DNA of 64,000 nucleotides from Candidatus Nezhaarchaeota archaeon (lineage in GTDB: Archaea; Thermoproteota; Methanomethylicia; Nezhaarchaeales; WYZ-LMO8), in the NCBI GenBank assembly GCA_025059375.1, contig JANXDO010000002.1, positions 252,966 through 316,965 on the forward strand, written 5' to 3'. How positions within the stretch are numbered: position 1 is the first letter of the stretch; the number at the start of each line of letters is the position of its first letter. The notes below the pieces were generated by a model that saw nothing but the letters and a program-made list of their open reading frames with translations, was not told the DNA's origin and did not search any database. This document shows positions 2,443-28,900 of the stretch, in pieces. A program made the translations under genes and the position numbers.

Positions 2443-3606
2443 GTGTCAACAACTGACTTAGTAGTAGGACCCATACATCCCGCCCTTCACGAGCCCGCCA
2501 GGTTCGTCTTTAAAGTTGATGGCGAAGTAGTGGTCGACGTGGAGCCTAGGGTAGGCTATGTTCATAGAGGGATTGAAAAGGCTATGACTGAAAGGACCTA
2601 CATTAAGGGCATATACCTAGTCGAGAGGATATGTGGTATATGCAATGTTGCCCACACATTGACGGCCGTTCAAGCCATTGAAGATGCTTTCGGTGTTGAA
2701 GTGCCTAGAAGAGCTAAATACCTACGCACCTTGGTTCACGAGCTTAATAGAGTGCATAGCCACTTACTGATTTTGGGCATCTTCTCAGAGCTCATTGGGT
2801 TTGAAACTCTATTCATGCTACTTTGGAGAGATCGAGAGGCGGTCATGGACCTCATAGAGATGGTCACCGGAAACAGGGTCATGTCCGCCTACAACATCAT
2901 AGGTGGCGTTAGGAGAAACATACGAGATTTTGAGATGGCTCAAATCAGGAGTACCATGAGCTCGCTCGTAGAGAAGGTTAAGCGCTACAAGGAAGTGTTC
3001 ATAAATGATCCGACAATAAGAGCCCGTAGCGTTGATGTCGGTTATCTAAGTAGATCTAAGGCTATAGCCCTCGGTGCTGTAGGACCCATAGCTAGAGGTT
3101 CTGGTCTTGAAGTGGATGTTCGAGTCGATGAGCCTTATGCTGCCTTTGATGAAGTCTCATGTACTCCGGTCGTGTATAGTGATGGTGATACATGGGCTAG
3201 GTTCATGGTTAGGCTTGATGAAATCCTTGAGGCTATAAACATCATAAATCAGTGTTTAGACAAAATGCCTTCAGGACCAGTTAAGGTACCTGTCCCTGAA
3301 GCTGCCCTTAAGACCTCTGAGGGATTTTCAGTGATTGAAGCCCCCCGAGGAGAGCTGATTCATCATGTGTATGTCAAGGAAGGTAACGACAAGCCGTTGA
3401 GGTATAGAATTAGAACACCCACTTATGCGAACATACCAGCAGTTTGTGAGATGCTAAAGGGAGGTTACATAGCTGATATACCTGCTGCACTTGTCAGTAT
3501 AGATCCTTGCTTTTCGTGCAACGACCGCTTGGCTATAGTCGATATAAACTCAGGGATGGGGAGGATTGTAGACATATTTAGCCTGGCAAGGAGGTTTAAG
3601 AAGTGA
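2443..3606 (+). CDS. mbhL: [NiFe]-hydrogenase group 4 large subunit (NuoD/MbhL-like)
   Basis: A 387-residue large subunit. Unlike complex I NuoD, it keeps all four NiFe-site cysteines: C64 and C67 in ERICGICNVAH and C356 and C359 in DPCFSCNDR. It should therefore be a real hydrogen-active enzyme. About 25 residues follow the CNDR motif, as expected for the C-terminal peptide removed by a maturation protease. The GTG start at 2443 has a strong GGAGG site 8-10 bases upstream. It overlaps the ferredoxin gene downstream by four bases. Confidence 0.93.
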   Translation: MSTTDLVVGPIHPALHEPARFVFKVDGEVVVDVEPRVGYVHRGIEKAMTERTYIKGIYLVERICGICNVAHTLTAVQAIEDAFGVEVPRRAKYLRTLVHELNRVHSHLLILGIFSELIGFETLFMLLWRDREAVMDLIEMVTGNRVMSAYNIIGGVRRNIRDFEMAQIRSTMSSLVEKVKRYKEVFINDPTIRARSVDVGYLSRSKAIALGAVGPIARGSGLEVDVRVDEPYAAFDEVSCTPVVYSDGDTWARFMVRLDEILEAINIINQCLDKMPSGPVKVPVPEAALKTSEGFSVIEAPRGELIHHVYVKEGNDKPLRYRIRTPTYANIPAVCEMLKGGYIADIPAALVSIDPCFSCNDRLAIVDINSGMGRIVDIFSLARRFKK

Positions 3607-25770: not shown

Positions 25771-26619
25771 TTACATCTCCTTTACTATTCTCCTGAACCT
25801 CGCCATCTCCTTGCACCTCCTCCTTTTCGGAGAGGCTATTAAAGCCAGTAAGTAGGCTGCTGAGACAACTATCCCTATTAGAGCGCTTGAAGCTACGTTA
25901 AAGATTAGTGAGAGGAAGAAGCCTGAGAGACCTGCTATTAGTGAAATAATTAGTGATATAGCGATCATTCGCTCCAAGTTATGTGAAAACTCGTAAGCTG
26001 ATGCAGCTGGTGCTATTAATAAGACTATTGCGAGGATGACGCCAACGACCTTTATGGCTACGATTGAGAATAGCGCTATTAAGAAGACCATGACGTAGTG
26101 GTAAAGTGAGACCCGTAAGCCCATAGCCTCTGCAGCTTCAGGATCAAATGTTATGAACTTAAATTCCTTATAGGATATAATCACTATGCTGAGGGTTGTG
26201 ATCGCAACCGCTATTAACGTGTAGAGGTCGATCCAAGAGACTCCAAGTACATCACCGATTATGAAGGACCACGCAGCGGCTGTATATGTGCTAGCTATTG
26301 ATAGGAAGAGGACGGCAAGCGCTGTTGAGAAGCCAAACATCATCCCAACTACTACGTCAGCCTTACGCTCATTGGATGAGCTGACGTAAGCAGTTAAGCC
26401 GGAGAAGCCTAGGCTCAACGTTAAGGCACCTAGTAGGGGGTTTACACCATAAATCGTAGCTATTGCTGCACCAGCAAATGAAGAGTGGGTTATAGCTGCA
26501 CTTAGAGTTGAGAAGCCTCTTAGAACTGTAAACGTCCCCACTACGCTTGATACAACTGCAGCTATGACTATGGATGCGAGAGCCCTCCACACGAAGGAGA
26601 AAGAGAATACGTCAAGCAT
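25771..26619 (-). CDS. znuB: Metal ABC transporter permease (ZnuB/MntB family)
   Basis: A 282-residue membrane protein with eight or nine predicted helices of the ABC-3 family (GTFTVLRGFSTLSAAITHS near the N-terminus; LLIAPAASAYEF in the later part). It forms the channel for Zn, Mn or a similar divalent cation. It overlaps the ATPase gene by 8 bp and ends in a basic cytoplasmic tail. Which metal it carries cannot be told from sequence. Confidence 0.93.
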   Translation of the reverse strand: MLDVFSFSFVWRALASIVIAAVVSSVVGTFTVLRGFSTLSAAITHSSFAGAAIATIYGVNPLLGALTLSLGFSGLTAYVSSSNERKADVVVGMMFGFSTALAVLFLSIASTYTAAAWSFIIGDVLGVSWIDLYTLIAVAITTLSIVIISYKEFKFITFDPEAAEAMGLRVSLYHYVMVFLIALFSIVAIKVVGVILAIVLLIAPAASAYEFSHNLERMIAISLIISLIAGLSGFFLSLIFNVASSALIGIVVSAAYLLALIASPKRRRCKEMARFRRIVKEM

Positions 26620-27391
26620 GTTGATCTAACCCTGATACTACAACTTTTTCCTCAGCTTTAAGTATTGATATCCTTCTCATAAAGGTCTTGGCCAAGAGGT
26701 TCTCGTTCAAGATTTCATGTACCTTACCAAAGGCTATAACTGTCTTGTTGAGCAACATTACGTAGTCTGATAACTCCATGACCGGATTTAGGTCGTGAGT
26801 CACCATAATTATCGTCATCCCTCCATCAGCCTCCTTCCTTAATAGCCTTAGTATAATTTCTTGAGTTGCAGCGTCAACCCCTGATAGTGGTTCATCAAGG
26901 AGTAGGAGCTTTGGTTCAACAGTTAGGGCCCTCGCGATTAAGACGCGCTGCTGTTGACCTCCTGACAGGTGTGTGTATGGTTCATCCCAAAACCCTTCCA
27001 TTTCGACTGCTCTCAGTGCTCTCTTAGCAGCCTCGTAGTCTTCTCTCGTCAACCTCATGCCCCACCCCCTTCTAGCTATCCTTCCCATAAGGACTACGTC
27101 CTTAACTAACACCGGCTTCGTAGGATCTATCCTCTCCCTCTGTGGCACATATCCTACCAACTTTCTTAACTTGTACTTGTCATGAGGTATCCTATAGCCT
27201 AAAACTTCTATCAGCCCCGCTAAAGGTTCAACTATACCTAAAAGTGCTTTAAGCAAGGTGGTCTTTCCCGATGCGTTAGGACCAATGACGGAGAGAAAGG
27301 CTGGCTTAGGTAGCTCAAAGCTCACATTCTCTAGTACTGGCCTATCTTCATATGCTACTAGTAGATCCCTCACGTAGATTGTAGGCATCAT
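26612..27391 (-). CDS. znuC: Metal ABC transporter ATPase (ZnuC/MntA family)
   Basis: A 259-residue ABC ATPase. Walker A is GPNASGKTT, the Q-loop follows in VGYVPQRERID, the signature is LSGGQQQR and Walker B is LLLLDEPLSGVD, followed by the H-loop MVTHDL. It drives the adjacent ABC-3 permease. It overlaps the permease gene by 8 bp and the binding-protein gene by 4 bp, giving a tight znuA-znuC-znuB order. Confidence 0.95.
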   Translation of the reverse strand: MMPTIYVRDLLVAYEDRPVLENVSFELPKPAFLSVIGPNASGKTTLLKALLGIVEPLAGLIEVLGYRIPHDKYKLRKLVGYVPQRERIDPTKPVLVKDVVLMGRIARRGWGMRLTREDYEAAKRALRAVEMEGFWDEPYTHLSGGQQQRVLIARALTVEPKLLLLDEPLSGVDAATQEIILRLLRKEADGGMTIIMVTHDLNPVMELSDYVMLLNKTVIAFGKVHEILNENLLAKTFMRRISILKAEEKVVVSGLDQHA

Positions 27392-28410
27392 CTCAACCTT
27401 AACCTTAGGATTATGATGCCTTCAATGACGGCTATTGAGGCTAAGAGAATTATTAGAGCTATGTAGACTTCGCTCATTAAGGGCATGGCGAGCCTACTAA
27501 TTGGTTGGTCATGCGTTAGATGCGATGTTAGAATCATCGAGTTGTACTTTATGAACTCCACGTATGTATCGCTCATCGATAGTGGTACACCGTACAGGCA
27601 GGCTATTGGAATACCTGACTCAGCTGAAACTTGGCTAGCATAAGCTCCTTCATAACCTTCAACTTGAAGAGCGGACACCACGATAAGCTTTGAGGTTCTA
27701 GCAGCATTAACAGCCTCCTTAATCTTTTGAGGTCCAGGCAATCCCCCCTCTCCTTTAATTATTATAGAAGAGATGCTAAGGCCCAGCCATTTAACGAAAG
27801 GTTCAAAGTGATCCCCAGCAAGTAGAACTCTTACTTCCTTAAAATTCTCCATGACGCTATCGCGCCATTCTTCAAGCTCGTTAATCTTGCCTTCAAATAT
27901 GTTTGCTCTTAAGAAGTAATAATCTCTATTATTTGGATCCAAGAGCGACATGGCTTTCGCTACCACTTTGGCGATGATTTTGGCGTTTGGTGGATAAAGC
28001 CACAGGTAGTGAGGATTATCATCCTCCACATGTACCCCTTCTTTGATCCAAGAGTCCCAGTTTATGATTAAGCCTCCCCGCGCTCTTAGCTCTTCAATAT
28101 GCCCTTGAAGTTGGCCTAAGAATTCCTCCTTCCCAACACATATAAATAAGTTACACGATGCGACTTTCATGGCATGCTCAGGTGTTGGAGAGTATAGGTG
28201 AGGATCCACACCTGCTGGTGCTAACACGTAAATTTCTGTATTATTGCCTATAATCTCCTTAGCTATTAAGTATAAGGGACTTATCGTTATAACGATGAGG
28301 GGCTTATCATCACCCTCGATCTTAGCATGGATTGGACAAGCTGAGAGACACAGAAATGCTAGGAGTGCAAGGATTGCGAAGAGAGATGGCCTTACTCCAA
28401 GCAGGTCCAC
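27388..28410 (-). CDS. znuA: Metal ABC transporter substrate-binding protein (ZnuA family), membrane anchored
   Basis: A 340-residue secreted binding protein. A signal peptide covers about residues 1-30. Metal-ligand histidines are seen in GVDPHLYSPTPEH and GDHFEPF. Unusually, a C-terminal transmembrane helix (YIALIILLASIAVIEGIIIL) with a basic end follows the binding domain, which should anchor the protein in the membrane in place of a lipid. The start is a GTG at 28410, the first gene of the operon, divergent from the NikR-like regulator. Confidence 0.93.
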   Translation of the reverse strand: MDLLGVRPSLFAILALLAFLCLSACPIHAKIEGDDKPLIVITISPLYLIAKEIIGNNTEIYVLAPAGVDPHLYSPTPEHAMKVASCNLFICVGKEEFLGQLQGHIEELRARGGLIINWDSWIKEGVHVEDDNPHYLWLYPPNAKIIAKVVAKAMSLLDPNNRDYYFLRANIFEGKINELEEWRDSVMENFKEVRVLLAGDHFEPFVKWLGLSISSIIIKGEGGLPGPQKIKEAVNAARTSKLIVVSALQVEGYEGAYASQVSAESGIPIACLYGVPLSMSDTYVEFIKYNSMILTSHLTHDQPISRLAMPLMSEVYIALIILLASIAVIEGIIILRLRLR

Positions 28411-28426
28411 ACCCTTTAATCGCTAG

Positions 28427-28442
28427 AGCTAATATATTAGCT
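28427..28442. promoter_or_regulatory. 16-bp perfect palindrome between znuA and nikR-like gene
   Basis: AGCTAATATATTAGCT is its own reverse complement. It begins 17 bp upstream of the znuA start and lies 78 bp from the NikR-like start. It is AT-rich enough to double as a promoter element of the metal transporter operon. A direct repeat GTGTTAT (28488-28494 and 28501-28507) lies between a TATA-like AATATTTAAATT (28465-28476) and the regulator start. Both are candidate operators. Confidence 0.5.
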
Positions 28443-28519
28443 TTACTTCAAAAAACTTATTAAAAATATTTAAATTCATGCTCTTTAGTGTTATTATATG
28501 GTGTTATGGATTGACTATA

Positions 28520-28900
28520 ATGACATTCTCCATACCGCAGGAGCTTGAAAAGGATTTAAATGATGTTATTAAGTACATGGGGTTTGTCAATAGATCTGAG
28601 GCTATAAGGTATGCTCTTAGACTATTGGTGTCAGAGTTTAAGAGTTTAAGTGGGCTGATTGGTAAGGTGCTGGCTATAGTGGCTGTTGTCTACAAGGAGA
28701 GTGCGGAGAAGACGAGGGTTTGTAAGGTCCAGCACGAGTATGGTGATATAATTGATGCATACTTTCATGCTCACATAGATGGCGAGAAGTGCGTGGAGGT
28801 CATGGTTATTCATGGTGAGGCTGAGAAGGTGCGGTGTTTTCTTAATGGTCTTAGAGCATCAAGAGATTTAGAGCAGATGAGGATTGTGTTTTTAAGCTGA
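28520..28900 (+). CDS. nikR: NikR-family metal-responsive regulator
   Basis: About 126 residues from the ATG at 28520 (MTFSIPQELEKDL), which starts the ribbon-helix-helix cleanly; an earlier in-frame start would add a hydrophobic stub. Residues 1-45 are the RHH DNA-binding domain. The C-terminal ACT-like domain keeps the nickel site pattern: H in VQHEYGD, the HxH in YFHAHIDGEKC, and the Cys in EKC. The divergent metal ABC transporter is its likely target. NikR proteins repress uptake genes when nickel is bound. Confidence 0.85.
   Translation: MTFSIPQELEKDLNDVIKYMGFVNRSEAIRYALRLLVSEFKSLSGLIGKVLAIVAVVYKESAEKTRVCKVQHEYGDIIDAYFHAHIDGEKCVEVMVIHGEAEKVRCFLNGLRASRDLEQMRIVFLS

What the first reader, a model, noticed from the sequence alone, without database searches (positions are those of the whole stretch)
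25771..28900. NikR-like regulator divergent from a Znu-type metal ABC transporter
ABC-3 transporters usually carry Zn or Mn and are controlled by Zur, DtxR or MarR-type proteins. Here the divergent regulator is NikR-like with the His/HxH/Cys nickel site. The transporter may carry nickel, needed by the [NiFe]-hydrogenase in the same window, or the regulator may have changed its metal.
Basis: partly seen in the sequence, partly recalled or inferred. Interest (0 to 1): 0.55.

Follow-up and report, generated by a model that had tools for sequence, protein, structure and literature searches.

The report
NikR-like regulator of a zinc-type importer
In this archaeon a relative of the bacterial nickel switch NikR sits opposite a zinc-type metal importer, and comparison with other archaea suggests that this branch of NikR has moved from nickel uptake to controlling other, probably zinc, importers.

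Summary
In detail: a RHH + NikR_C protein with intact His/HxH/Cys ligands lies divergent from znuA-znuC-znuB. It is no local oddity. It belongs to a NikR subfamily ("NikR2") beside 23 of 31 ABC-3 permease genes of the class (Methanomethylicia), and also found in Bathyarchaeia. Elsewhere NikR2 is divergent from ZIP permeases, an unknown "HPLH" membrane protein and, once, linked to a CbiMQO-like ECF importer. Relatives share an operator, TTATTAA-N14-TTAATAA: exact at N14 in 19 and at N15 in 3 of 22 hold-out loci, none in shuffles. It was not found in the window's own family. The same genomes carry a second, ordinary NikR, and many of their MHIPDG-type Ni/Co importers carry the classical NikR half-site GTGTTAC, so there appear to be two regulons. 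NikR2 has lost the Y-x-H histidine of the solved Ni-NikRs. Best reading: a metal-switched NikR, probably zinc-responsive, repressing a zinc importer. The nickel reading is not excluded: all four ligands persist, and some methanogen genomes show no other importer of the nickel families searched. A NikR-ZnuABC neighbourhood with a zinc suggestion is already in print for Methanothermobacter.

The parts
28511..28900 (+). nikR2: ribbon-helix-helix + NikR_C regulator (first-stage ORF begins at 28478; probable start TTG 28511)
   Evidence: start by comparison with four relatives
27388..28410 (-). znuA-type metal-binding protein of the ABC-3 importer, with a C-terminal membrane anchor
   Evidence: Pfam ZnuA 123 bits; AlphaFold model matches AztC, ZnuA, YfeA, PsaA
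26612..27391 (-). znuC: ABC ATPase
   Evidence: Pfam ABC_tran
25771..26619 (-). znuB: ABC-3 permease
   Evidence: Pfam ABC-3 177 bits
28411..28510 (.). divergent promoter region; AT-rich blocks conserved in five genomes of the family, probably including TATA boxes; no copy of the NikR2 operator of relatives
28428..28441 (.). perfect 14-base palindrome GCTAATATATTAGC, next to znuA; overlaps the likely znuA TATA box; function unknown
   Evidence: read; the block TATATTA is conserved in the five genomes
2443..3606 (+).

Best explanation
The regulator is a NikR paralogue (NikR2) that left nickel control. Inferred mechanism: when its metal, most likely Zn(II), is plentiful, NikR2 binds it at the His3Cys site of the NikR_C tetramer, grips an inverted repeat in the importer promoter and represses the ABC-3 importer; under starvation it lets go and the importer is made. 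Supported by comparison: conserved pairing, a shared operator in relatives, and separation from the classical nickel regulon. Inferred only: the metal, the direction of regulation, and the operator in the window's own lineage.
For: Pairing: 23 of 31 ABC-3 permease genes above 90 bits in the class lie beside NikR2. In the tree all 52 rows linked to ABC-3 or ZIP, plus L054 and L124, fall on one side of a branch with only two further rows, support 86/95. Operator: exact at N14 in 19 and at N15 in 3 of 22 hold-out loci (12 ABC-3, 10 ZIP), none in 100 shuffles; of 9 class genomes with one exact site and no control site, 8 have it before the NikR2-linked importer. Partners are mostly families known for zinc: ABC-3, and ZIP with HNxxD and HExPQE motifs. 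Separation: 9 of 20 CbiM promoters have an exact GTGTTAC/GTAACAC half-site (shuffle mean 0.24, max 2) against 1 of 30 NikR2-linked promoters. No His at the Y-x-H place in any of 50 ABC-3- or ZIP-linked NikR2. The window genome has its own CbiM, ZIP and second NikR.
Against: All four NikR nickel ligands are kept in 37 of 37 ABC-3-linked rows. One NikR2 operon is a CbiMQO-like importer with the operator. G012, G030 and G031 have MCR and hydrogenases but no CbiM, NicO, SBP_bac_5 or ZIP match, so the ABC-3 could be their nickel importer. In the class 16 of 16 MCR-positive high-quality genomes have a NikR2-linked importer and 0 of 5 MCR-negative ones do, which suits nickel demand, though lineage confounds it. 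The operator is missing in the window's family (0 of 6 genomes). The binding protein does not settle the metal: zinc and Mn/Fe proteins tie as structural matches.
Confidence: 0.55

Rival explanations
1. NikR2 is still a nickel sensor, and the linked ABC-3, ZIP, ECF and HPLH proteins import nickel (or nickel and cobalt), so archaea use several undescribed nickel importers.
For: All four nickel ligands are conserved; G025 lacks ABC-3 and has CbiMQO-like genes under the same regulator and operator; G012, G030 and G031 have nickel enzymes and no match to the other nickel importer families searched; NikR2-linked importers track MCR in the class.
Against: Partners are mostly ABC-3 and ZIP; classical NikR half-sites stand at other CbiM promoters; the Y-x-H histidine is lost; the G025 CbiM is atypical (N-terminus MAHIHLPDG, not MHIPDG); FecCD-type systems in G012 and G031 remain possible nickel importers.
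Confidence: 0.27
2. NikR2 answers to another metal or to several (Co, Mn, Fe), and the importers are broad divalent-metal importers.
For: ABC-3 and ZIP families also carry Mn and Fe (established knowledge); the window ZnuA model matches YfeA and PsaA about as well as ZnuA; in f6 and f7 the ABC-3 operon is led by a DtxR-family gene instead.
Against: A His3Cys site is unusual for Mn or Fe sensing; MHIMEG-type (cobalt-type, recalled) CbiM operons of the class show neither motif.
Confidence: 0.13
3. The neighbourhood is inherited and NikR2 does not control the transporter in the window's lineage.
For: The relatives' operator is absent from all 6 genomes of the family and from the window promoter.
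Against: The divergent pair is kept in 5 of 6 genomes of the family, the sixth being near a contig end; promoter blocks are conserved; the DNA-reading strand differs, so a different operator is expected.
Confidence: 0.05

Closest known systems
NikR (E. coli, H. pylori, P. horikoshii)
   Same: RHH + NikR_C fold and the four nickel ligands; the 28-base operator frame of two half-sites resembles E. coli GTATGA-N16-TCATAC (PMC7055735, passages) and GTGTTAC-N13/14-GTAACAC (PMC545781, passages).
   Different: Scores below every NCBIfam NikR cut-off that it matches; no Y-x-H histidine; loop before the first ligand two residues shorter; different operator sequence in relatives; partners are ABC-3 and ZIP.
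NikR homologue beside ZnuABC in Methanothermobacter (MTH603; MTBMA_c09830)
   Same: NikR homologue next to ZnuABC; the authors suggest a zinc-responsive regulator (PMC3087415, passages).
   Different: Not tested here whether MTH603 belongs to the NikR2 clade or has its operator; no experiment was seen.
Zur-ZnuABC of bacteria
   Same: Works-like parallel: metal-dependent repressor beside a zinc ABC-3 importer.
   Different: Zur is a Fur-family protein; NikR2 is RHH + NikR_C. Zinc response not shown.
NikR-NikMNQO
   Same: NikR family next to an importer, operator in the promoter.
   Different: Different importer type and operator; in this class the MHIPDG-type CbiM has the classical half-sites instead.

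Membership tests
NikR family (fold) | RHH DNA-binding domain followed by NikR_C | tested here: met
   NikR_C 53.2 bits against cut-off 22; aligned over residues 15-137 with 2bj1
NikR, nickel-responsive (functional) | Ni ligands His76, His87, His89, Cys95 | tested here: met
   present in the window and in 37 of 37 ABC-3-linked rows
NikR, nickel-responsive (functional) | score over the curated cut-off of an NCBIfam NikR model | tested here: not met
   best 82.2 bits against 111; 72.8 against 83; TIGR02793 63 against 175
NikR, nickel-responsive (functional) | Y-x-H histidine shared by the three solved Ni-NikRs (my criterion, not a published definition) | tested here: not met
   window has VYKES; 0 of 50 ABC-3/ZIP-linked NikR2 have His there
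NikR, nickel-responsive (functional) | Ni(II)-dependent DNA binding | not testable with these tools
   needs protein and DNA
ABC-3 importer | binding protein, ATPase and ABC-3 permease genes together | tested here: met
zinc importer ZnuABC | zinc ligands in the binding protein | tested here: inconclusive
   DPH, NPH and GDH present, but the third His is shifted in the alignment and no fourth acid is clear
zinc importer ZnuABC | zinc selectivity | not testable with these tools
   zinc and Mn/Fe binding proteins tie as structural matches
Zur | Fur-family fold | tested here: not met
   Pfam finds only NikR_C

The most novel reading that the evidence does not exclude
A branch of NikR has become an archaeal stand-in for Zur: it keeps the four nickel ligands but, by changes outside them (loss of Y-x-H, shorter loop, new DNA-reading strand), answers to zinc, and through one operator controls four unrelated importer types, one of them (HPLH) a permease family without a Pfam or NCBIfam match.
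Probability: 0.42. Interest if true: 0.72.

Novelty: new variant of a known kind. Interest (0 to 1): 0.55.

Why it matters
If true, a regulator family that annotation uses as a marker of nickel uptake would mark zinc uptake in many archaea, so importers and metal needs are being misassigned. It would also be a natural test of how a metalloregulator changes its metal while keeping its ligands. If the nickel rival is true, ABC-3 and ZIP become undescribed nickel importers of methanogens; PMC2667541 (passages) lists only three Ni/Co importer families in archaea.

Tried and rejected
First idea: the ABC-3 carries nickel (MCR correlation, missing importers, G025 swap). It was downgraded after ZIP partners appeared in the hold-out set, the G025 CbiM proved atypical and classical half-sites appeared at other CbiM promoters.

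Binding-protein ligands: three His are suggested in the window's family, but the third is shifted in the alignment and the fourth acid is unclear; not used as proof. The structure comparison could not separate zinc from Mn/Fe proteins. The HPLH protein had no significant match in the PDB (best E 0.22). No operator was found in the window's family; the window match nearest the locus lies inside nikR2 with 2 mismatches, and such matches are near chance level (11 against a mean of 6.3). Loci of G012, G017, G031 and others were read for further nickel importers; FecCD-type and peptide-type ABC genes were seen, some beside cobalamin-like genes by eye, and no classical NikR site.

The literature searches cover open-licence PubMed Central only; of papers I saw search listings and passages, no whole text. 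PMC12350162 (passages) names NikR1, MTBMA_c10530 and MTBMA_c10830 as raised under nickel limitation and does not name the ZnuABC genes in those passages; its figures and tables were not seen.

Rows dropped: seven duplicate NikR rows, all among the 30 Bathyarchaeial loci; L273 was also left out of the hold-out count because its contig ends at the gene. Six ABC-3 promoter regions of 30-32 bases (L089, L094, L096-L099) are too short to test and are not among the 30 promoters quoted. One long-branch NikR row (L161) stood unlabelled in the first tree and was relabelled ZIP in the second.

Full report
Observation. The first-stage description is right. The regulator has a ribbon-helix-helix start and a NikR_C domain; the divergent operon encodes a ZnuA-type binding protein, an ABC ATPase and an ABC-3 permease. 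The four nickel ligands are present. The start is probably TTG 28511, shared with relatives. A true [NiFe]-hydrogenase large subunit is in the window at 2443-3606. The genome (1.47 Mb) falls with Nezhaarchaeota: G037 of the same family has the contig that is named Nezhaarchaeota WYZ-LMO8 in public records (same length and gene order). The class is called Methanomethylicia here from the names of its members.

A conserved pair. In the class 38 of 40 genomes have NikR, many with two copies. The window genome has NikR1 on another contig with no importer beside it, and NikR2 here. Of 31 ABC-3 permease genes above 90 bits, 23 lie beside NikR2. Of the other eight, one is near a contig end (G038); four are led by a DtxR-family gene (G003, G004, G006, G008; Pfam run on three of the four); two belong to another ABC-3-like operon type (G033, G039), with FmdE confirmed in G039; and in G002 no regulator was recognised. 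In the window's family and in f8 the pair is divergent; in f9 nikR2 follows znuB. The divergent pair also occurs in five named Bathyarchaeota loci and in one contig labelled Asgard, whose NikR nests in the Bathyarchaeial clade.

Partners outside ABC-3. A search of 256 genomes of G156's class, taken to be Bathyarchaeia because known Bathyarchaeota loci are among its hits, found NikR-like matches in 214 genomes; the 30 best gave loci. Of these 18 are linked to ABC-3, 10 to ZIP (Pfam Zip confirmed on seven; the rest by profile), 1 to HPLH, and 1 is cut by a contig end. ZIP also stands upstream of NikR-like genes in three Methanomassiliicoccales records, read in full for one of them. In G025, which has no ABC-3 above FecCD level, the linked genes are CbiM-, CbiQ- and CbiO-like. 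In Hecatellales B24 the partner is an unknown membrane protein, HPLH, without a Pfam or NCBIfam match, rare in the phylum (4 of 398 genomes).

Operator. The motif GTTATTAA-N14-TTAATAAC was noticed by eye in Bathyarchaeial intergenic DNA. Among 30 full-length NikR2-linked promoters, 25 had a site with at most 3 mismatches of 16, and 16 with at most 2; three of the 25 are weak by shuffling (6, 6 and 12 of 100 shuffles as good), and the window's own falls inside nikR2. The exact 14-letter core occurs at 18 places in 13 of 40 class genomes. Nine places are before a NikR2-linked importer (eight ABC-3, one CbiM). Of the other nine, mostly in very AT-rich genomes, seven were read and lie elsewhere; two were not read. 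The reversed control pattern has 12 places. Nine genomes have one site and no control site: in eight (G010, G013, G014, G018, G019, G022, G024, G025) it is before the importer, in G003 it is not; several of these genomes are close relatives. In 22 hold-out loci not used to find the motif, 19 have it exactly at N14 and 3 at N15, no other spacing from 6 to 22 gives any, and shuffles give none. The perfect core also stands before the HPLH gene in Hecatellales. The window's family has none (0 of 6 genomes). There the DNA-reading strand also differs (T-F-S for S-L-S), so a changed operator is plausible but not shown.

A separate nickel regulon. Of 20 CbiM genes in the class, 9 have an exact GTGTTAC or GTAACAC half-site within 130 bases (shuffles: mean 0.24, maximum 2), including the window genome's own CbiM; G034 has a perfect GTGTTAC-N13-GTAACAC. 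This is the NikR signal described in PMC545781 (passages). Only 1 of 30 NikR2-linked promoters has such a half-site. That NikR1 reads these sites is inferred.

The regulator itself. ABC-3-linked rows keep all four ligands, 37 of 37; ZIP-linked rows keep the last three in 13 of 13 and the first His in 10 of 13. None of these 50 has His at the Y-x-H place, which the E. coli, P. horikoshii and H. pylori NikR have, as do 5 of 7 CbiM-linked and 30 of 38 unlinked rows. None has Arg at the place of E. coli Arg3 (recalled numbering), which 6 of 7 CbiM-linked rows keep. In the tree, importer-linked rows take one side of a branch: support 97/96 with 72 rows, with two unlinked rows on that side besides L057, whose contig ends in znuA; 86/95 with 98 rows, with two extra rows. 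There are few columns, so inner forks are unsure.

Zinc or nickel. For zinc: the partners are mainly ABC-3 and ZIP; the nickel regulon seems separate; Y-x-H is lost; and a zinc role was already suggested for a NikR beside ZnuABC in Methanothermobacter (PMC3087415, passages). PMC7949043 (passages) reports that H. pylori NikR binds zinc but is not properly switched by it, so a zinc NikR would need changes outside the ligands. For nickel: intact ligands; 16 of 16 MCR-positive high-quality genomes have a NikR2-linked importer (15 ABC-3, 1 CbiM-like) against 0 of 5 MCR-negative ones; and G012, G030 and G031 have nickel enzymes but no match to CbiM, NicO or SBP_bac_5. The MCR link is confounded by lineage, and those three genomes also lack ZIP, so their single ABC-3 could import either metal. 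FecCD-type systems exist in G012 and G031. G025, G032 and G034 show neither a true ABC-3 nor a ZIP, so zinc can be had without either. I put zinc at 0.55, nickel at 0.27, another or mixed metal at 0.13, and no control of the transporter at 0.05.

Novelty. The bare neighbourhood is in print for Methanothermobacter. I found no report of the NikR2 clade, its operator, or its ZIP and HPLH partners in searches, which cover open-licence papers only. PMC10617489 (passages) found no NikR and lists no NikM-column hits in two Verstraetearchaeota genomes at a strict cut-off, which the present data would explain by the distance of these NikRs.

Noticed in passing
L124:4096-4749(-), L265:751-1404(-), L247:133-744(-), L036:5235-5957(-); relatives in L246, L248: HPLH family: a small helical membrane protein with conserved H, H..H, SD and PCC..SD motifs, divergent from NikR genes in Hecatellales, G156 and G034; candidate metal permease without a Pfam match.
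   Followed up: partly
L255:3966-6855 (G039); L254:6088-8947 (G033): A different ABC-3-like operon with an FmdE-family gene between binding protein and ATPase (Pfam FmdE in L255; similar order by eye in L254).
   Followed up: no
L250:297-731, L251:3171-3605, L252:3764-4198, L253:4394-4810: In f6 and f7 the ABC-3 operon begins with a DtxR-family regulator instead of NikR2 (Pfam run on three of four).
   Followed up: partly
L203-L213, L219 (class family f9): NikR1 is usually divergent from a pair that looks by eye like large and small aconitase-type dehydratase subunits; no importer beside it.
   Followed up: no
L069:5937-8397, L070:6536-8996: A third NikR type in f6, divergent from a P-type ATPase, with a ZIP gene about 3 kb away.
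   Followed up: no
L161, L166, L173: Methanomassiliicoccales: ZIP gene upstream of a NikR-like gene whose first ligand His is shifted (QAKHEN).
   Followed up: partly
L140: Contig labelled Asgard LC30, but its NikR nests inside the Bathyarchaeial clade; possibly misbinned or transferred.
   Followed up: no
L190:6974-8446: A Syntrophaceae NikR gene next to a lone ZnuA-like gene, with no ABC-3 permease found in the locus.
   Followed up: no
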